Shown in pieces: positions 24,137 to 31,632 of a DNA stretch of 47,778 nucleotides (positions are counted from its first letter, which is position 1; each line of letters starts with the position of its first letter). Made by a program: the position numbers and the translations under genes. The stretch lies in the NCBI GenBank assembly GCA_002393195.1, contig DGIK01000211.1:1-47778 (forward strand). Reading direction: 5' to 3'. The stretch is from Bacteroidales bacterium UBA3824. Lineage in GTDB: Bacteria > Bacteroidota > Bacteroidia > Bacteroidales > UBA3824. Below the pieces are notes generated by a model. The model had not been told where the DNA came from and did no database searches. It saw nothing but the letters and a program-made list of their open reading frames with translations.

Positions 24137-24679
24137 TTAGTAGCTTACCACGAGCGTATTGATTTTCTGACATTCTGCCTTGCCGTGCTCGCGGATTTCG
24201 GCGGAAGGCTCAAAGTTGTAACTCTGCGACGAAAACTTGTACACCTGCGAATACGCCACGCTGTAATCGTTGGCAACCAAGATTTTGATCATCATCTTGG
24301 CGGCGGAGTTGCGGGGGATGTCGAGCATTTCGCTAAATTCGCCCGCCTCGTACAGCCTGATGACATTGGCGTAGCGGTCGGCGTCAAACATAAACTTGTG
24401 CAGCTTCATCGACTTGCCGTCGCAGTAGTAGCGCGACTTTTTCACGAACAGTGTGATTGCGCCATACGCCACGGCGCAAAGTCCCATCACAAAGAGAGCC
24501 ATTGTGAGCGCGCCGTCTTCCTTGTCGAATGTCTGGGCTACAAACATCAATGCGCCGATTGCGAGCCACACGATGCCCATTGGGTTGATAGTTTTTTTGC
24601 TCGTAACCTTGCCGCCGGTGAAATTAGAAATGCCGTCCTCGATGGTTACGAAATTATTGTTGTTGTTAGAATTTGCCAT
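24137..24679 (-). CDS. Two-helix membrane protein, unknown function
   Basis: 180 residues from the ATG at 24679 (MANSNNNNN); an upstream Met adds 14 hydrophobic residues that lack coding character. A polar, Asn-rich start is followed by two transmembrane helices (about 35-53 and 58-78: NPMGIVWLAIGALMFVAQTF, then ALTMALFVMGLCAVAYGAI). The remaining 100 residues are cytoplasmic by charge (KKSR after the second helix) and hold no recognised motif. It converges on the ABM gene. Unknown family; it could be a conserved Bacteroidota membrane protein. Confidence 0.6.
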   Translation of the reverse strand: MANSNNNNNFVTIEDGISNFTGGKVTSKKTINPMGIVWLAIGALMFVAQTFDKEDGALTMALFVMGLCAVAYGAITLFVKKSRYYCDGKSMKLHKFMFDADRYANVIRLYEAGEFSEMLDIPRNSAAKMMIKILVANDYSVAYSQVYKFSSQSYNFEPSAEIREHGKAECQKINTLVVSY

Positions 24680-24776
24680 TTTGAGTATTACTTTAATTAA
24701 ATTAGACAATAGTATTACCATAGAGCAAGTTGTCTATCACTTGCAATTACAAAAAAACTGGGAGATTAATGGCAAA

Positions 24777-25160
24777 TCAAATTGAAAGTTTGCAAACGAA
24801 ATGCAATAGCGAACGACCAGATTTTTCGTAATGACAATACGTCTGCCGCTCGATACGAGATATTTTGAAGGTGTTGTTGTCGATGGCAACCTTTGAGAGC
24901 GCGTCAAAAGCCAACTTGCGCTTCTCAAAAGTGCGTTGCGACGTGCGTGGACTCGGCGAAGTGCGCAATGTGGGCGCGTCGTTTTCACCAATGATTCCGA
25001 GCCAGCAATAATCCCGGATTACGCCGTAATCGTCGCTGTCGTCATCCAAGGTCGCCACCTGACAATTGGCATCAAAATCCCTGACCTCGACGCCTCGCTG
25101 CATCTCGCAGCCCGATGTCGAAATCAAGAGCAATACCAATGTCAAAAGTCGCAAAAGCAT
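24777..25160 (-). CDS. Small lipoprotein, unknown function
   Basis: 127 residues with a lipoprotein signal peptide (MLLRLLTLVLLLISTSGC); the lipobox TSGC puts the lipid on Cys18. The mature chain has four more cysteines (ANCQ, DYCW, TYCH, FVCK), which may form two disulfides in the periplasm. No family recognised. A good -7 promoter lies 23 bp upstream. It lies near the two-component genes but faces away from their promoter and has its own, so a functional link is not shown. Confidence 0.6.
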   Translation of the reverse strand: MLLRLLTLVLLLISTSGCEMQRGVEVRDFDANCQVATLDDDSDDYGVIRDYCWLGIIGENDAPTLRTSPSPRTSQRTFEKRKLAFDALSKVAIDNNTFKISRIERQTYCHYEKSGRSLLHFVCKLSI

Positions 25161-25182
25161 ATCTTATACTGGATTTACGATG

Positions 25183-25190
25183 CAAAGGTA
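25183..25190 (-). promoter_or_regulatory. Bacteroidota -7 promoter of the small lipoprotein gene
   Basis: Minus-strand TACCTTTG followed by CATCG, 22 bp ahead of the start codon. Confidence 0.65.
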
Positions 25191-25221
25191 GTGATTTTTT
25201 AGACGAAAACGCAAAAAGCCA

Positions 25222-26142
25222 TTATTTTTTTAACGAAAAATATAACGTAAGCCCGCCGCCGTCGGTAGTTTTGGCAGAGATAGTGCCGTTGTGAAGGACT
25301 ACGGCGTTTTTAACGATTGCAAGCCCAAGCCCGGTGCCGCCGAGCTGACGGCTTCGTCCCTTGTCAACCCTGTAAAAACGCTCAAAAATGCGTTGCAGAT
25401 GCTCCTCCGGTATGCCCGCGCCATTGTCGGCAAAGGTAAAATGCCAATAGCCCGACTGTTCGTAAGCCGAAATCTCCACCTTGACGCCCTGTCCGGCATA
25501 ATTGAGCGAATTGTCTATCAAATTGCGGAAAATGCTGTATATCAGCGAATAATTGCCGTTGACGATAATATCGCACGGCAGGCAGTTGGAGAGAGTCATC
25601 CGCTTTTTGCCGAACAAGATGGCGGTTTCGTCCACTATGTCGGCAAACAGTTTGGAGACATCCACACGCTCCATCGTGATGACACTCGATGCATAATCCA
25701 TCCTATTGAGCGTGGAAATATCCTGCAACAGAGCCGTCAACCGCTGCGCCTGACCATGCGCGCGCTCCACAAACTGTCGGCAAAGCGCATTGTCGATGTC
25801 GGGCGTGTTGATGATGGTTTCGGTGTAGCCTAGGATGCTCGCCACGGGTGTTTTGAGCTCGTGGGAGATGTTTTGGGTGAGTTCGCGGCGCATCTGATTG
25901 TGCGTTTCCTGTTGCTCGCGGGTGATTCGCTCGTCCATGCTTTTGGAATAACGATGCAATAGTATGCCCAACACAAACATCACAACAATCGAAAAAGCGA
26001 GCAAATGCCAGTCGCTCGCCTCTCTGAATGGCATCATGTTGCTGCGGTCGTAATCTTCAAAGAGGATAAAGACCACAGCGTAGCCCAAAAACATCACCAT
26101 AATGGTGAACCACATACGCCGTCCTTCACTCAATTTTTTCAT
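25222..26142 (-). CDS. PhoR-like sensor histidine kinase
   Basis: 306 residues from the ATG at 26142 (MKKLSEGRR); an upstream ATG at 26163 would overlap the regulator gene by 11 bases and is possible. Two transmembrane helices (about 11-28 and 46-63) enclose a very short outside loop of about 17 residues, so the protein probably senses within the membrane or through a partner. The H box ISHELKTPVASILGY carries the phosphorylated His94. The N box NLIDNSLNYA, G1 DNGAGIP, F box FERFYRVDKGRS and G2 GGTGLGLAIVK complete a normal kinase. It is the second gene of a pair with the PhoB-like regulator. Three genes upstream is a Na/Pi cotransporter, so phosphate is a likely signal. Confidence 0.9.
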   Translation of the reverse strand: MKKLSEGRRMWFTIMVMFLGYAVVFILFEDYDRSNMMPFREASDWHLLAFSIVVMFVLGILLHRYSKSMDERITREQQETHNQMRRELTQNISHELKTPVASILGYTETIINTPDIDNALCRQFVERAHGQAQRLTALLQDISTLNRMDYASSVITMERVDVSKLFADIVDETAILFGKKRMTLSNCLPCDIIVNGNYSLIYSIFRNLIDNSLNYAGQGVKVEISAYEQSGYWHFTFADNGAGIPEEHLQRIFERFYRVDKGRSRQLGGTGLGLAIVKNAVVLHNGTISAKTTDGGGLTLYFSLKK

Positions 26143-26152
26143 AACGAGACAT

Positions 26153-26833
26153 TTAGTTGTCAATCAAAAAGCAATAACCGTACCCGTGTCTTGCCACGAT
26201 ATGGTCGGCATAGGCGCCCAACTTTTTGCGGAGCCGCGTTACAGTAACGTTGACAGTATGATTGGAGACCACCACGTCTTCGGGCCATGCGCCGGAGAGC
26301 AACTGCGGCCGCGAAAGCACCTTGCCGGCGTTTTTCATCAGGAGATAGAGCAATTCAAACTCGGTCTTGGTAAGCTCGGCGTTGATGCCGTCGATGGTGG
26401 CGGATTTTTTTACGGGGTTGATGCTTAAGCCCTTGAACACTATCGCGTCGCTATCTTCTTCGAGACTTGTGCGGCTGAGCACCGCCTTGACCCTCGCCAA
26501 AACTTCGCGCACCGAAAATGGCTTGGTGATATAATCGTCGGCCCCTACATCAAATCCGTGAAGGGTGTCGTCCTCGGTGTCCTTGGCGGTAAGAAAAATT
26601 ATCGGCGTTTTGCAGCCGCTCTGCCGCAAGATTTTGGCGAGGTCAAACCCCGAAATGCCGGGCATCATCACATCGAGCAACACAAGGTCGTACAACGACG
26701 GATCCAGTTGCAAGGCATCCTCGCTCGAGAATGCGATTGTAGCCTGATAGCCAGCCATTTTGACATTAAATTCAAGTATTTCGCAGAGGTCGGGTTCGTC
26801 ATCGACGATAAGAATTTTTTTGGGTTGCATCAT
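26153..26833 (-). CDS. OmpR/PhoB-family response regulator
   Basis: 226 residues. Receiver domain with acidic pocket DDE (11-13), phosphorylated Asp54 in LLDVMMPG, and Lys in TAKD/ITKPFS. C-terminal winged-helix DNA-binding domain (about 130-226) ending in VTVTRLRKKLGAYADHIVAR, the usual recognition-helix region. Its gene is directly upstream of the histidine kinase. A -7 promoter element lies only five bases from the start codon, so the transcript may be leaderless or nearly so. The genes upstream (PepSY-like lipoprotein and Na/Pi cotransporter) make phosphate the likely regulon, but no Pho box was identified. Confidence 0.92.
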   Translation of the reverse strand: MMQPKKILIVDDEPDLCEILEFNVKMAGYQATIAFSSEDALQLDPSLYDLVLLDVMMPGISGFDLAKILRQSGCKTPIIFLTAKDTEDDTLHGFDVGADDYITKPFSVREVLARVKAVLSRTSLEEDSDAIVFKGLSINPVKKSATIDGINAELTKTEFELLYLLMKNAGKVLSRPQLLSGAWPEDVVVSNHTVNVTVTRLRKKLGAYADHIVARHGYGYCFLIDN

Positions 26834-26837
26834 GTGT

Positions 26838-26845
26838 CAAAATTA
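26838..26845 (-). promoter_or_regulatory. -7 promoter of the two-component operon, very close to the start codon
   Basis: Minus-strand TAATTTTG ends five bases before the regulator ATG, predicting a leaderless or very short-leader mRNA. It directly abuts the T-run of the preceding terminator. Confidence 0.5.
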
Positions 26846-26846
26846 T

Positions 26847-26893
26847 AAAAAAATCGGATAATCAAAAAGCTGCACTCATTTTAATTATCCGAT
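26847..26893 (-). terminator. Rho-independent terminator after the PepSY-like gene
   Basis: ATCGGATAAT (26853-26862) and ATTATCCGAT (26884-26893) form a perfect 10-bp stem with a 21-base loop; on the minus strand seven T follow. It separates the PepSY-like gene from the two-component operon. Confidence 0.75.
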
Positions 26894-26926
26894 GGAGAAA
26901 AACGAACTATGATTTAACTGATTTCT

Positions 26927-27223
26927 CTACTTGTCGATTGTAGCGTTGAAATCCTTGTCAAACTTGATTTCTACGCCATTGTCGAGCTCGATTTCATATC
27001 CGTAAGAGTTGCATTCAATCTTTACAATCTTTTTGTCGGCATAGTTTTTTGCCAAATCTTGCTCTACGGCTTTGATTTGCTCGTCGGCAAAATTGCTCTT
27101 TATCAGCTCCTGCGCAACGGCTGGCAGTGCCGCAACGTCGATTTTCTTGTCATTCTTCTGGGCGTTGCACGACATGAAACTCAGTGTCAGCAATATCGCC
27201 ATCAAAAAATTGATTGTCTTCAT
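26927..27223 (-). CDS. PepSY-like small lipoprotein
   Basis: 98 residues with a lipoprotein signal peptide (KTINFLMAILLTLSFMSC, lipobox FMSC). The mature part reads like a single unit of the PepSY-like (PF11396 type) fold: LPAVAQELIKSNFADEQIKA, then KIVKIECNSYGYEIELDNG, then IKFDKDFNATID. Family members often have two such units and about 140-150 residues, so this one is short and may hold one repeat only. Own promoter at 27246 and own terminator. These proteins are often encoded beside two-component systems and may modulate the sensor. Confidence 0.7.
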   Translation of the reverse strand: MKTINFLMAILLTLSFMSCNAQKNDKKIDVAALPAVAQELIKSNFADEQIKAVEQDLAKNYADKKIVKIECNSYGYEIELDNGVEIKFDKDFNATIDK

Positions 27224-27245
27224 TGTGAATAGATTTTTAGTTTTA

Positions 27246-27253
27246 CAAAGTTA
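27246..27253 (-). promoter_or_regulatory. Bacteroidota -7 promoter of the PepSY-like gene
   Basis: Minus-strand TAACTTTG followed by TAAAAC, 22 bp ahead of the start codon. Confidence 0.6.
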
Positions 27254-27313
27254 CTGCATTATTGGCAAATGCAGCAATATTTTTGGTTACAAAACAGTTA
27301 CAAATTCACCTAA

Positions 27314-28996
27314 CTATTTGCCAAACCTTGCCTGCATGACGTTGACAATATAATCACCGATTTTTTCCAATTCCGACACGTAGTCGCTAAACATGATGCC
27401 GATGGTGTAATCGTAGCGGTGCTCGTTGATATTGTCGATGTTTTTGGCTTTGAGATTGTCGCGCAACTTATTGATTTCGTTTTCGATGCGGAATGTCTCC
27501 TTGATGTCCTTGGTGCCCGAATGGTCTGCCATGACCACACACATCTGGTCCAAGGCTTTGTTGCACAAAGCTGTAAGGGCTTTAAGATCGACAATTTGGT
27601 CGCCAGAGAAATTACGTTTCATATTTTTGCCACGGTTGATAATCCTCGCAAGGTTGTAGCACGAATCGCTGATGGATTCCAGCTCGCCGATGATGCGTAT
27701 CATGCTGCGAATCTTTTGCTTGGTCTCGTCGCTGAGGTGTCCGTCGCTCACTTGCTCGAGATAGTGCGCAATCTCCACCTCCACACGATCCGACGAATCT
27801 TCCATCCTCTCTATCGAGGCAAATTGCTTGTCAAAATGTTTGCTATTGTCATCATCCAAGAGATCAATCTCTTTTACAAACATATCCCTGACGCTTTCGG
27901 CAAATCTCGTGGTCTCCTTCTGTGCCTGGAGCACCGCGATTTCGGGAGTTTCCACCAGATGAGACTTGATGTATTGCAATCGGAAAACGTCTTCCTGTTC
28001 GTTTTTGCTGGGCAGTATCTTGCAAACGAGAGTCTCTATTTTGGGAATAAAGAACACCATAATCGCCGTATTGGTAACATTGAAACACGTGTGGAACGTG
28101 GCAAGCACCACCGAAAGCCGCTGCGAATCAGCATTGCCGGTGTATCCCGCAATGTTGCAAACCAAATCGACAAGCGGATAAAAAACCATCAGCACCCACA
28201 ATACGCCAAACACATTGAACACAAGATGCGACAATGCCGCCCTTCGCGCCTGAATGCCCGCGCCCAACGCCGCAAGATTGGCGGTGGCGGTGGTGCCGAT
28301 ATTTTCGCCCATTACCAATGCTATGCCGAGATGAATGGGCAATACTCCTGTAGTACAGAGCATTATGGTAATTGCCATAAGAGCCGCCGACGATTGCAAT
28401 ATGCAAGTAAGCACCGTGCCGATTGCCACAAAGGCTATAATAGTAAAGTGGCTCGACGTATCAAAATTGGCAAAAAAATTCACCACCTGACTATTGTGTT
28501 CCAAATCCATCTCCTTGCCGGACGCACTCAGCATCACCAGCGAAAGAAACAAAAAGGCGATGCCAAACAGAAACTCGCCTACATACCGGCGGCGTTTTTG
28601 GTAGAGAAGAATCACGCCGATAAAAAACGACGGGAAAACAATGCTCGACAAGTCGGCAGAATAGCCCAACGACATAATCCAAGCCGTGAGCGTGGTGCCG
28701 ATATTTGCGCCCATAATCACGGCAATTGCCTGAGCCAACGTGAGCAATCCCGCCGAGACAAACGAGACTGTCATCACCGTGGTAGCCGACGACGACTGCA
28801 CGACGCTGGTTACAAAAGCACCGGTAAGGATACCCGAAATTCGGTTGGTGGTCATTTTGGCGAGAATGTGGCGCAACTGAGGGCCAGCAATTTTTTGCAA
28901 CGATTCGCTCATCAGCCTCATTCCATAGACCATAAGGCCGAGCGCGCCCAGCAATTTGAGCGCAATCATTAGATAATCAGGGGATTGTGATTCCAT
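27314..28996 (-). CDS. Na+/phosphate cotransporter with PhoU-like domain
   Basis: 560 residues from ATG 28996 (MESQSPDYLMIAL); a Met 18 codons upstream lies over the promoter and is rejected. Two Na/Pi-cotransporter repeats of about eight to ten helices: VTSVVQSSSATTVMTVSFVS in the first and LTCILQSSAALMAITIMLC in the second, with the QSSSATT and QSSAAL signature of the NptA/SLC34 family. The C-terminal 190 residues form a helical PhoU-like domain (LEQVSDGHLSDETKQKIRSM and IIGELESISDSCYNLARII). It takes up phosphate with sodium, and the PhoU part probably ties transport to phosphate status. The neighbouring PhoB/PhoR-like pair fits this role. Confidence 0.9.
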   Translation of the reverse strand: MESQSPDYLMIALKLLGALGLMVYGMRLMSESLQKIAGPQLRHILAKMTTNRISGILTGAFVTSVVQSSSATTVMTVSFVSAGLLTLAQAIAVIMGANIGTTLTAWIMSLGYSADLSSIVFPSFFIGVILLYQKRRRYVGEFLFGIAFLFLSLVMLSASGKEMDLEHNSQVVNFFANFDTSSHFTIIAFVAIGTVLTCILQSSAALMAITIMLCTTGVLPIHLGIALVMGENIGTTATANLAALGAGIQARRAALSHLVFNVFGVLWVLMVFYPLVDLVCNIAGYTGNADSQRLSVVLATFHTCFNVTNTAIMVFFIPKIETLVCKILPSKNEQEDVFRLQYIKSHLVETPEIAVLQAQKETTRFAESVRDMFVKEIDLLDDDNSKHFDKQFASIERMEDSSDRVEVEIAHYLEQVSDGHLSDETKQKIRSMIRIIGELESISDSCYNLARIINRGKNMKRNFSGDQIVDLKALTALCNKALDQMCVVMADHSGTKDIKETFRIENEINKLRDNLKAKNIDNINEHRYDYTIGIMFSDYVSELEKIGDYIVNVMQARFGK

Positions 28997-29019
28997 TTTT
29001 AAGTGATTGATTTTGACGG

Positions 29020-29027
29020 CAAAATTA
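29020..29027 (-). promoter_or_regulatory. Bacteroidota -7 promoter of the Na/Pi cotransporter
   Basis: Minus-strand TAATTTTG followed by CCGTC, 23 bp ahead of the chosen start codon; supports the shorter start. Confidence 0.6.
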
Positions 29028-29168
29028 TAGACGGCATCCATCAAAAGCAAATAATTGGCGTTACAATATTGTTACAAATCACTACTAACACACCCCATTT
29101 AAGAGGAATAAACCGACACACAACCGAAGCCGTCCAACACCTTGATGCCGACAAGGTAAAAAAATCAT

Positions 29169-29176
29169 TATATTTG
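29169..29176 (+). promoter_or_regulatory. Bacteroidota -7 promoter of the sigma factor-beta-barrel gene
   Basis: TATATTTG followed by CATTC, 61 bp ahead of the start codon at 29238. The leader of about 55 bases has no obvious structure. Confidence 0.6.
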
Positions 29177-29237
29177 CATTCTCTTGCAGTCTTTTGATGT
29201 ATTTTTGTACATACTATATGTATAGAGACTTTCAAAA

Positions 29238-30893
29238 ATGGACATTTCGCAACTCATCGAACAATGCAGACAAGGCAACGAACAGGCATTAAGTCAGTTG
29301 TACAGCACATACGCCAACAAAATGAAGGGCGTGTGCCGACGTTATTTTGCTGACAGTGCCACAGTTGACGACATCTTGCACGATGCGTTTGTGGTGATTT
29401 TCACGACGCTCGACAGCCTGCGCGACACGAGCAAGGCGGAGGCATGGATGATGTCTATTGTCAGAAACATTGCCTCAAAAGCCAAACTGCAATACAAGGC
29501 GACGCCGTTTGTCAGCCTTGAAGACGCAGCCTCTATTATTGATGATAACGACAGCGAACCCGTTGACATTCCAAATGTTACAAAACTCATCGACCAACTT
29601 CCCGAAGGCTATGGCAAAGTTTTCAGGTTGTCGGTTTTTGAAGGAATGACACACAAACAGATTGCCGCAGAGTTGGGCATCGAACCTCATTCGTCCTCGT
29701 CCCAACTGTCGAGGGCAAAGTCAATGTTGCGCTCCATACTCCGCAAGTCGCTGATTTTGTTGCTTTTATTACTCTCAACGACCACGCCGCGCCAATTGCG
29801 GCATCAGCGTCAACAGTTTACTATAACGCCCTCAAGTCCTGCTCATAACGACACGACGTCAATAGAGGGCGTTGTTGAGGCCAATAATAATCCACCGTCA
29901 AAAATCGCAATAATCCACGACACCTTGCCTGACACGTCGTCAAACATTGCGATACAAACGCCAGATTTGTCCGACACGCTCATGCAAATTGTCGCCATTG
30001 ACTCAACGACAACGGAGCATGACGCAGATATTGTGAAACTCGACACCACGACTTGGCAGCCCGACAACATTGTGCCGCAACCCAAATGCCACGGCAAATG
30101 GTCTGTAAAACTTTCTTATTCAGGAGCTTTCGACAAGACAAGCCATTACAACCAGCCGTACATTTTTGAGCCGGCGTCGTCTGTGGCTTCCGACATACAA
30201 TCCACCCCAGTTGTAGGTCCAATAATTAGTCCAGTTGCGCCTGCAGCGCCCTCTATCATAGACAATTGGAACGATTATGCCATCTATCTCTCCAACCATC
30301 CCGAACTTGTAAGTAGCAAGGCGAGCCGCGCCATCGCAAGGATTGCGCTCAACAACGCCGCACAGCCCGGCAACGACAAGATGTTGCGCACAAGCATCCA
30401 CCAAATGCCCGCCTCGTGGACGTTGACGCTTAAATACAAGTCCGACAAGCGTTTGGGATTTGAGACCGGGTTAGGCTTTACAAACATGATTTCAGACTTT
30501 GAGATTGGCGCAGACGGCAATATCATAAAGGAACGTCAGTCAATCAGTTACATCGGATTGCCAATAAAGGGCATCTACACCGTTTGCGACAAACGAAGGC
30601 TGAACCTTTACTTTGAATTGAACATCACAACTGAAATTCCATCAAGTGCTTCGCTACGTTCTGATTATTACATTTCGGGTGTGTACGAGACAAGCGACAA
30701 AACTACAATCAAAGCACCGTGGCAGTGGTCGGCGGGCTGCGGATTTGGGTTGCAATACAACATCACGCCCAAAATCGGATTGTTTGCAGAGCCGTTGCTA
30801 CAATATTATTTCCCACTATCAGGCATCGAAACCTACCGCACAGAGCATCCGAAAATGTTTGTTGTGCCGGTTGGACTGAAATTTTCTTGGTAG
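29238..30893 (+). CDS. ECF sigma factor fused to a hydrophobic segment and C-terminal beta-barrel-like domain
   Basis: 551 residues in one uninterrupted frame. Residues 1-90 are sigma region 2 (DDILHDAFVVIFTTLDSL; WMMSIVRNIASKA) and about 105-165 region 4 (LPEGYGKVFRLSVFEGMTHK, then QIAAELGIEPHSSSSQLSRAK). A normal ECF factor ends there. Instead Met163 opens MLRSILRKSLILLLLLLSTT, which is basic then hydrophobic, like a signal peptide or short anchor. A Thr/Asp/Pro-rich linker follows to about 380, then strands such as LTLKYKSDKRLGFETGLGF and WSAGCGFGLQYNITP, ending in LKFSW with a C-terminal aromatic residue, as in 8-stranded outer-membrane barrels. GAGGG sits eight bases before ATG 29724, so internal initiation could yield a separate exported barrel. 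Sigma and barrel parts are clear; the joint is unusual. Confidence 0.75.
   Translation: MDISQLIEQCRQGNEQALSQLYSTYANKMKGVCRRYFADSATVDDILHDAFVVIFTTLDSLRDTSKAEAWMMSIVRNIASKAKLQYKATPFVSLEDAASIIDDNDSEPVDIPNVTKLIDQLPEGYGKVFRLSVFEGMTHKQIAAELGIEPHSSSSQLSRAKSMLRSILRKSLILLLLLLSTTTPRQLRHQRQQFTITPSSPAHNDTTSIEGVVEANNNPPSKIAIIHDTLPDTSSNIAIQTPDLSDTLMQIVAIDSTTTEHDADIVKLDTTTWQPDNIVPQPKCHGKWSVKLSYSGAFDKTSHYNQPYIFEPASSVASDIQSTPVVGPIISPVAPAAPSIIDNWNDYAIYLSNHPELVSSKASRAIARIALNNAAQPGNDKMLRTSIHQMPASWTLTLKYKSDKRLGFETGLGFTNMISDFEIGADGNIIKERQSISYIGLPIKGIYTVCDKRRLNLYFELNITTEIPSSASLRSDYYISGVYETSDKTTIKAPWQWSAGCGFGLQYNITPKIGLFAEPLLQYYFPLSGIETYRTEHPKMFVVPVGLKFSW
29724..29726 (+). promoter_or_regulatory. Possible internal translation start inside the sigma factor-barrel gene
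   Basis: In-frame ATG at codon 163, eight bases after GAGGG, immediately before a signal-peptide-like stretch. Initiation here would release a 389-residue exported beta-barrel protein without the sigma domains. Confidence 0.35.
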
Positions 30894-30975
30894 CGTCATG
30901 CAGTACAAGCGGTTTTTGTGGACTATATAAGTAGAAAACACAAACAAACGTTTTATTAACAAAATTTGCAAGATT

Positions 30976-31569
30976 ATGAACAGATTCATCAACACAACAG
31001 TATTTGCGGTCGCGATGGCGGTCGCAGGCTCGGCACTCAATTCATGCTCGTTGCCAGACAACCACGAGACAGACGCACCCTTCACTACTTGCCCCGTCGC
31101 AGAGAAACCGTCGCTCGTATGCAACGGATTTAATGTGATGCCCACGGCAAATGCAGACGGCAACAGCGTCGCGACTTCCGAGTACGGCAACAGCGTGATT
31201 TTCACGGAGAACGACATTTGTTATTTTGATGTCAACACCCGCGAACTCAAATTCTTCGGCGAAATGGATTCGCTCTACAAGAAAATCGGCGTGCTTGAAG
31301 GCATCGAATTTCATCTCGGCGACAAGATGCTGTTTTCGGGCAGTTGCACGTCTGTAAGTCTGGCTTGCAGTCAGATATTCGACGACATTGTGTTGTGTTA
31401 CGGCGATATTGACGAAGACGGCAATGTCCGCAATGGCTACTACCTTCTCGACTGTTATCCGTCGTGGTACGCCGACTCTGACGCCGTGAAAGCCAACCGC
31501 GCAAAACACGCCGGCGATTGGGCAACGTTCATCGAATATCTCGACAGCAAGGGCAAATTGCGCAAGTAA
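30976..31569 (+). CDS. Exported lipoprotein, unknown function
   Basis: 197 residues with a lipoprotein signal peptide (NRFINTTVFAVAMAVAGSAL then NSC; Cys24 is the probable lipid site). The mature chain has further cysteines (TTCP, LVCN, DICY, GSCTS, LACS, VLCY, LDCY), a lot for this size, so several disulfides are possible. It ends with WATFIEYLDSKGKLRK. No family recognised. It follows the sigma factor-barrel gene by 82 bp on the same strand and is followed by a terminator, so it may be its operon partner and a candidate sensor or target. Confidence 0.65.
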   Translation: MNRFINTTVFAVAMAVAGSALNSCSLPDNHETDAPFTTCPVAEKPSLVCNGFNVMPTANADGNSVATSEYGNSVIFTENDICYFDVNTRELKFFGEMDSLYKKIGVLEGIEFHLGDKMLFSGSCTSVSLACSQIFDDIVLCYGDIDEDGNVRNGYYLLDCYPSWYADSDAVKANRAKHAGDWATFIEYLDSKGKLRK

Positions 31570-31594
31570 TTACCCACAAACTCTCCTAAAACTA

Positions 31595-31632
31595 AAAACG
31601 CTTTCTTGGATGGTCAAGAAGGCGTTTTTTTT
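31595..31632. terminator. Bidirectional terminator between convergent genes
   Basis: CGCTTTCTTG pairs with CAAGAAGGCG (one mismatch) around GATGGT, with eight T on the plus side and TTTTT on the minus side. It serves both the lipoprotein gene and mlaF, whose stop overlaps the T-run. Confidence 0.8.

What the first reader, a model, noticed from the sequence alone, without database searches (positions are those of the whole stretch)
29238..30893. ECF sigma factor fused to a signal-like segment and an outer-membrane-barrel-like domain
One frame of 551 codons joins a normal ECF sigma factor (regions 2 and 4, residues 1-165) to a basic-hydrophobic stretch, a Thr/Asp/Pro-rich linker and a C-terminal beta-barrel-like domain ending in an aromatic residue. 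A cytoplasmic transcription factor and an outer-membrane barrel should not share a compartment. Either the chain is tethered at the inner membrane and cut to release the sigma part, or internal initiation at Met163 (GAGGG eight bases upstream) yields two proteins from one gene. Both would be unusual ways to wire envelope sensing to transcription.
Basis: partly seen in the sequence, partly recalled or inferred. Interest (0 to 1): 0.75.

Follow-up and report, generated by a model that had tools for sequence, protein, structure and literature searches.

The report
Sigma factor tethered to outer-membrane barrel
This bacterium makes one protein that joins a gene-switching factor in the cell interior, through the inner membrane and a long flexible strap, to a barrel in the outer membrane; the layout is already known from one poorly understood gut-bacterial protein, but here it comes with a conserved pair of promoters that suggests which genes it controls.

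Summary
In detail: one intact 551-codon frame encodes an ECF sigma factor, an inner-membrane helix, a disordered linker and an OmpA-like barrel ending in Trp. It is no accident: 233 proteins (nonredundant at 90%) hold both halves in one frame, both halves are under purifying selection, and the fused sigma domains form one clade (100/100). [quoted passage not shown] The architecture is in print: Dma3 of Bacteroides thetaiotaomicron carries its sigma factor at its N-terminus (PMC13088901). So: a new member of a known kind.

What I add: (1) a single ancestral fusion; (2) the anti-sigma domain of split Dma proteins is not detected in any of the 233, so the sigma seems held by tether alone; (3) a conserved ECF-type promoter stands before the fusion and again before the next gene, a small lipoprotein; its pattern occurs exactly twice in the window. 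Internal initiation at Met163 is not supported. Best mechanism: sequestration at the inner membrane, release by regulated proteolysis on envelope stress. Release is inferred, not shown.

The parts
29185..29213 (+). predicted ECF-type promoter P1: TGCAGTCTTTT, 11-base spacer, GTACATA, beginning 53 bases before the start codon
   Evidence: 113 of 121 upstream regions match GCAGTCTTTTG in at least 9 of 11 bases; base profile from 119 of 121; strict two-box pattern in 74 of 121; only match of a longer pattern in the 4.18-Mb genome. Recognition by this sigma is inferred.
29238..30893 (+). fused gene: ECF sigma factor - inner-membrane helix - disordered linker - outer-membrane barrel (551 aa plus stop)
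29238..29735 (+). ECF sigma domain, residues 1-166 (region 2 at 21-79, region 4 at 114-164)
   Evidence: Pfam; sigma-E, SigW, AlgU relatives by sequence and fold; dN/dS median 0.11
29739..29792 (+). inner-membrane helix, about residues 168-185
   Evidence: best hydrophobic segment starts a median of 4 residues after the sigma domain in 399 fused sequences, redundancy included; helix 153-191 in the model at moderate confidence; dN/dS 0.165
29805..30089 (+). disordered T/S/P/D-rich linker, residues 190-284, taken to cross the periplasm
   Evidence: pLDDT under 50 over 190-278; length 88-123 residues in 89 members although the sequence drifts (dN/dS 0.345)
30090..30890 (+). 8-stranded OmpA-like outer-membrane barrel, residues 285-551, with a C-terminal GxxFxW
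30159..30383 (+). 75-residue first loop of the barrel (residues 308-382), with predicted helices; surface-exposed if both ends of the barrel are periplasmic; candidate sensor
   Evidence: strand order in the model (residues 317-327 of the loop are under pLDDT 50); the loop is 14-26 residues in 55 and 57-76 in 34 of 89 members; sensing role inferred
30899..30925 (+). predicted ECF-type promoter P2 before the lipoprotein gene: TGCAGT-N15-GGACTA
   Evidence: loose pattern occurs exactly twice in the window, here and at 29185; 0 in 20 shuffles. It lacks the CTTTT of the consensus.
30976..31569 (+). small predicted lipoprotein (197 aa; lipobox by eye), probable co-regulated partner
   Evidence: homologue directly downstream of the fusion in 68 of 114 loci, this one included, all on the same strand; no Pfam family over cut-off and no NCBIfam family

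Best explanation
This is a Dma3-type, self-tethered ECF sigma factor. Shown by sequence: a sigma gene was fused, once as far as the trees tell, to the membrane-helix, linker and barrel part of a protein of the dual membrane-spanning anti-sigma (Dma) kind, and the anti-sigma domain of the split forms is not detected in any fused protein tested. Inferred: the sigma domain stays in the cytoplasm, the helix acts as an uncleaved anchor (N inside), the linker crosses the periplasm and the barrel is put into the outer membrane, so the sigma is kept at the inner membrane instead of being masked by an inhibitor. Inferred: when the barrel fails to assemble, binds a ligand with its first loop, or the linker becomes exposed, periplasmic and then intramembrane proteases cut the chain and free the sigma. 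Predicted from DNA: the freed sigma recognises TGCAGTCTTTT-N10/11-GGACTATA-like promoters before its own gene and before the neighbouring lipoprotein gene, giving positive feedback and probably a small regulon.
For: Intact frame and domains. Conserved fusion: the best 120 listed of 2271 hits all span it, 119 at 100% and one at 95% query coverage. One clade of fused sigmas, 67 rows (representatives under 60% identity), support 100/100, next to 11 of 14 split sigmas (90/98); barrels likewise, 36 fused against 14 split, SH-aLRT 98. Barrel homologous to split Dma-type proteins; beside the split pair lies a NigD gene in the three loci tested, and Dma1 acts through NigD1 (PMC13088901). Anti-sigma-domain HMM: 14 of 14 split partners hit (leave-one-out 13 of 13, weakest E 1.2e-4), 0 of 233 fused below E 1, best 3.9. 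Membrane segment directly after region 4. Purifying selection on both halves. Promoter pair, with a -35-like box that differs between fused, split and other sigma groups. Precedent for release by proteolysis: IutY of Pseudomonas putida, a sigma fused to its membrane anti-sigma, cut by Prc and RseP (PMC8999054, passages).
Against: No experiment. No protease site or signal is identified. The helix of this lineage is short and only moderately hydrophobic; 24 of 399 fused sequences score under 1.6, and one (P0064) seems to lack the helix. P2 in the window lacks the CTTTT of the consensus. The strict two-box pattern is found upstream in only 74 of 121; 3 of 18 fusion-bearing genomes have no strict match, and 13 of the 38 strict matches lie away from a fused gene, so the regulon may be wider. 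46 of 114 loci lack the lipoprotein next door. The sequence of B. thetaiotaomicron Dma3 (BT_2778) was not obtained, so kinship with it is by architecture only. Some relatives carry disrupted copies.
Confidence: 0.76

Rival explanations
1. The chain is never cut: the sigma domain works while tethered, as CadC- or ToxR-like membrane-bound activators do, and the barrel/linker state changes its access to RNA polymerase or DNA.
For: No anti-sigma domain is detected that would have to be removed; the helix is conserved in nearly all members and the linker length is held.
Against: A sigma factor must bind core RNA polymerase and go with it to promoters; the studied membrane-fused ECF sigma, IutY, is activated by proteolysis (PMC8999054, passages). 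CadC/ToxR are recalled, not taken from a call.
Confidence: 0.2
2. Two proteins from one gene: internal initiation at Met163 (or at a nearby Met) makes a separate barrel protein with a signal-like N-terminus.
For: GAGGG stands 8 bases upstream; 216 of 231 homologues have some Met within 16 residues of the RAK motif; raw synonymous change is lowest at codons 151-165.
Against: No single Met is conserved; the bases around it encode the conserved S/A-RAK motif; after correction for amino acid the dip is mild, unlike the real start, though that test is weak. Bacteroidota rarely depend on Shine-Dalgarno sequences (recalled).
Confidence: 0.07
3. The sigma half no longer works in transcription and serves only as a competitor or structural cap on the barrel protein.
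For: No direct test of activity exists here; disrupted copies occur in some relatives.
Against: The sigma half is the most constrained part (dN/dS 0.11); regions 2 and 4 match Pfam in 89 of 89 members; a matching promoter pair has stayed with it.
Confidence: 0.05
4. Assembly or annotation accident joining two genes.
For: The genome is a fragmented assembly with 6.4% contamination.
Against: The same fusion is seen in 233 sequences nonredundant at 90%, from many separate assemblies; a neighbouring gene on the contig is 84-100% identical in 16 of 18 genomes of the genus, this one included.
Confidence: 0.01

Closest known systems
Dma3 (locus BT_2778-2779) of Bacteroides thetaiotaomicron, Dma family (PMC13088901)
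   Same: One protein with a domain at the N-terminus that functions as its sigma factor and Dma architecture behind it; not encoded next to a separate ECF21 sigma.
   Different: This member lies in another family of the order, has a short membrane helix and a 75-residue first barrel loop. Whether Dma3 lacks the anti-sigma domain or has the promoter pair was not seen in the text I read.
Das1/Dma1 and Das2/Dma2 (PMC13088901), and EcfO/Reo (PMC9308784 and PMC13114119, passages): sigma and anti-sigma pairs of Bacteroides and Phocaeicola
   Same: Membrane helix, long disordered tether and C-terminal outer-membrane barrel in the anti-sigma; homologous barrel and sigma in the split pairs examined here; a small secreted-type target gene (NigD) at work in those.
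   Different: There the sigma is a separate protein and the barrel protein begins with an anti-sigma domain. Here that domain is not detected and the sigma sits in its place. The neighbouring lipoprotein is not recognisably NigD (similarity in the signal peptide only).
IutY (ECF243) of Pseudomonas putida, and ECF48/52/53 of Actinobacteria (PMC8999054, passages)
   Same: ECF sigma and membrane-bound regulator in one chain; IutY is activated by Prc/RseP cutting.
   Different: Those keep an anti-sigma part (FecR-type in IutY, recalled; zinc finger in ECF48/52/53), and no outer-membrane barrel in the chain is mentioned in the passages seen.

Membership tests
Dma3-type sigma-barrel protein | ECF sigma domain at the N-terminus of the chain | tested here: met
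   Pfam and NCBIfam; fold
Dma3-type sigma-barrel protein | transmembrane helix after the sigma domain | tested here: met
   hydrophobicity below the family median in this member, so the weakest of the met features
Dma3-type sigma-barrel protein | long disordered tether | tested here: met
   residues 190-278 pLDDT under 50; length 88-123 in 89 members
Dma3-type sigma-barrel protein | C-terminal outer-membrane barrel homologous to Dma barrels | tested here: met
   hhalign 100%, E 3.7e-54, 208 columns, against 8 split proteins of Dma layout; those are unnamed-genome relatives, not Dma1/Dma2 themselves
Dma3-type sigma-barrel protein | no separate sigma gene adjacent | tested here: met
   the four other matches to this protein in the genome at E 1e-3 lie on other contigs; no other sigma ORF seen by eye among ORFs of 26.0-34.5 kb
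Dma3-type sigma-barrel protein | orthology with BT_2778 itself | not tested
   BT_2778 was not named among the 120 proteins listed in each of three searches
Dma1/Dma2-type anti-sigma factor | N-terminal anti-sigma domain | tested here: not met
   HMM from split partners hits 0 of 233 fused proteins below E 1
Dma1/Dma2-type anti-sigma factor | encoded next to a separate cognate sigma | tested here: not met
   the sigma is in the same frame
ECF21 sigma group | membership by ECF classification model | not testable with these tools
   no ECF-group library; only its place in the tree next to split Das-like sigmas
IutY-type (ECF243) sigma fused to FecR-like anti-sigma | FecR-type anti-sigma domain in the C-terminal part (recalled) | tested here: not met
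   no FecR match in Pfam at E up to 1 or in 89 members at 1e-3
Regulated intramembrane proteolysis substrate | cleavage releases the sigma domain | not testable with these tools
   needs experiment

The most novel reading that the evidence does not exclude
A whole envelope-stress circuit collapsed into one gene and its neighbour: by losing the anti-sigma domain, the sigma factor came to be controlled purely by where a chain running from cytoplasm to outer membrane holds it, and it acts mainly on two promoters, its own and that of one lipoprotein, so that the outer-membrane sensor, the tether, the transcription factor, its feedback and its output fit in about 2.4 kb.
Probability: 0.4. Interest if true: 0.75.

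Novelty: new member of a known kind. Interest (0 to 1): 0.55.

Why it matters
[quoted passage not shown] The fused family looks like a natural deletion experiment: the inhibitor is gone and only the tether is left. If tethering alone suffices, Dma proteins in general may work by position and release rather than only by masking. The promoter pair gives a first, directly testable regulon.

Tried and rejected
Internal initiation at Met163: tested by residue conservation and synonymous-site constraint with the true start as control; not supported, though the second test is weak. Assembly accident: rejected. Contamination of the contig: the neighbouring ABC-transporter ATPase is 84-100% identical in 16 of 18 genomes of the genus, this one included, and only distantly matched in G006 and G012, so the contig belongs to the genus. 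But window positions from about 24.6 kb (25.2 in G011) to 31.6 kb, which hold the fusion, are missing at that place in G002, G008 and G011, with other sequence in their stead in G002 and G008.

The genome's other sigma with a membrane partner (contig C185, L271) was first noted as a split pair of the same sort (note); Pfam shows PKD and a CHU_C type IX secretion domain instead of a barrel, so it was left out of the Dma-type profile (one search replaces). Lipoprotein as a NigD relative: similarity in the signal peptide only. Folding the barrel from a single sequence failed (pLDDT 33); an alignment should have been given.

Papers: the PNAS 2024 paper that founded the Dma family is not held and was not read. 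PMC13088901: abstract, introduction, first and third results sections and discussion read, passages of the rest. Passages only: PMC8999054, PMC9308784, PMC13114119, PMC10434189, PMC12596196, PMC7406223, and PMC12045153 (one place, in its reference list). Searches for print; in their listings and in the papers opened, only PMC13088901 describes a sigma-barrel fusion. I do not claim that the loss of the anti-sigma domain or the promoter pair is absent from print.

Rows dropped before counts: of 23 sigma-barrel neighbour pairs found, five loci were disrupted fusions (L039, L159, L041, L209, L210) and four were repeat fetches of the same DNA (L150, L151, L224, L225), leaving 14 split pairs. The 399 fused sequences include redundancy and repeat fetches of the window; nonredundant at 90% they are 233, the window among them. 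The 121 upstream regions include the window twice; the 114 downstream regions include it once.

Full report

It is conserved, not an accident. The protein search gave 2271 hits at E 1e-3 or better among 7996 scored candidates; of the 120 listed, 119 cover the whole query and one 95%. A scan of one genome per species found 316 encoded relatives and kept the best 80; 77 of these match over residues 1-551, the three others start at residue 2 or 11 or end at 550; their titles say Prevotella, Prevotellaceae, Alloprevotella, Bacteroidaceae or Bacteroidales, many from ruminants. Among 151 genomes of one family (f59, which I take to be Bacteroidaceae, by inference) I count by hand 33 with both halves in one open frame; the list of matches was cut, so this is a lower bound. 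In the family f5, 6 of 14 genomes have an intact fusion and one has it frameshifted. In the window's own genus it is rarer: 3 of 18 genomes, this one included. In 393 genomes of the order searched with a Prevotella member, 9 had a match at E 1e-40 or better. Names given by sources include Prevotella, Bacteroides and Muribaculum. Between 38 independent pairs of relatives the median dN/dS is 0.11 for sigma (38 usable), 0.165 for the helix (31), 0.345 for the linker (37) and 0.134 for the barrel (35).

Where it came from. In other relatives the sigma gene is separate and is followed by a gene whose product has a short N-terminal domain, a membrane helix, a linker and a barrel. This is the layout reported for Dma proteins (PMC13088901). 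In the three such loci tested the gene beside the pair is NigD; Dma1 of B. thetaiotaomicron acts through NigD1 (PMC13088901). Profile against profile, the fused barrel and the split barrel align over 208 columns at E 3.7e-54. In a tree of 115 sigma domains the 67 fused ones form one clade (100/100) next to 11 of the 14 split ones (90/98; the other three split sigmas lie further off), so one fusion event suffices; the barrel tree agrees (SH-aLRT 98). G417, the genome of a locus titled Prevotella, holds both a fused gene and a split pair.

What was lost. A profile of the anti-sigma domain made from the split partners recognises all 14 of them (leave-one-out 13 of 13, the weakest at E 1.2e-4) and none of 233 fused proteins (best E 3.9). 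In 399 fused sequences (redundancy included) the membrane segment begins a median of 4 residues after the sigma domain, 5-95% range 1-7, which leaves no room for an inhibitor there; 24 of 399 have a weak segment, and P0064 seems to have lost it. The sigma took the place of the inhibitor.

What it probably controls. Upstream of the fused genes stands a conserved element, TGCAGTCTTTT, a spacer of 10-11, and GGACTWATA-like letters: 113 of 121 upstream regions match GCAGTCTTTTG in at least 9 of 11 bases, mostly 51-52 bases before the start; the strict two-box pattern is met in 74 of 121. By eye, 4 of 14 split sigma genes have TGCAGTATTTTT and 16 of 34 more distant sigmas TGCAACC at a like distance: the box follows the sigma, as expected of autoregulated ECF promoters. 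The same element recurs just after the fused gene, before the small lipoprotein gene: 44 strict or 47 loose matches in 68 loci that have the lipoprotein, 3 and 14 in 46 that do not, none expected from shuffles. In the window the loose pattern occurs exactly twice, at 29185 and 30899. A longer strict pattern occurs once in the 4.18-Mb genome, at 29185, but it would not see P2, so the regulon is not bounded by it. Over 18 genomes with a fusion there are 38 strict matches against 4 for the reversed pattern; over 9 genomes without, 4 against 6 (my sums). By hand, 16 of the 38 lie just upstream and 9 just downstream of a fused gene, and 13 lie elsewhere; three of the 18 genomes have none.

How it works. 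Shown: the anatomy, its conservation, the single clade, the missing inhibitor, the promoter pair. Inferred: the helix anchors the sigma at the inner membrane, the linker spans the periplasm, the barrel sits in the outer membrane, and proteolysis frees the sigma. IutY is the working precedent for a fused sigma released by proteases (PMC8999054, passages). The length of the linker (88-123 residues in 89 members) is held while its sequence drifts, as a strap of set span would be. The first barrel loop is long in this branch (75 residues) and short in 55 of 89 members (14-26 residues), so what is sensed may differ between branches.

Against. No experiment; the helix of this lineage is short (the window and P0001 share it, P0002 nearly); P2 in the window lacks CTTTT; the lipoprotein is missing next door in 46 of 114 loci, where a radical-SAM-like or a methyltransferase-like gene often follows instead (by eye; radical SAM confirmed in L218); some relatives have disrupted copies.

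Verdict. The kind is known: Dma3 of B. thetaiotaomicron was described as carrying its sigma factor at its N-terminus, with very little known of its role (PMC13088901); a transcriptome table elsewhere lists BT2778 simply as a sigma-70 family factor (PMC10434189, passages). What is added here is the single clade, the loss of the anti-sigma domain, and a promoter pair that makes the function testable.

Noticed in passing
G000 contig C185, L271:2317-3576 (-): Next to the genome's second sigma gene lies a 420-aa protein with an anti-sigma-like N-terminus and a hydrophobic segment (by eye), but PKD domains and a CHU_C type IX secretion signal instead of a barrel: another unusual layout for a sigma's neighbour.
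   Followed up: partly
window about 24646-31628: This stretch, with kinase- and response-regulator-like ORFs, a phosphate-cotransporter gene, the fusion and the lipoprotein, is missing at the matching place in G002, G008 and G011. G002 carries a related fusion plus lipoprotein elsewhere, near a gltX-like gene, and G008 a related fusion at the end of a contig near the same gene.
   Followed up: partly
L209, L210, L211, L039: Fused genes broken by frameshift or cut short in some Bacteroidaceae and f5 genomes; decay, sequencing error, contig ends or phase variation not resolved.
   Followed up: partly
G237 contigs C7, C11, C18 and G422 contigs C28, C33, C52: Extra strict copies of the promoter element away from the fusion, in genomes with two fused genes each: possible further regulon members.
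   Followed up: no
L218 and other fused loci, downstream: A radical-SAM/SPASM gene (with a Gfo/Idh-type oxidoreductase after it in L218) often follows the fusion or its lipoprotein in Prevotella-type genomes.
   Followed up: no
window residues 168-185 (29739-29792): The membrane helix of this lineage is shortened to LILLLLLLSTTTP; nearly the same in P0001 and P0002, so not a sequencing slip. It could be unusually weak or even cleavable.
   Followed up: partly
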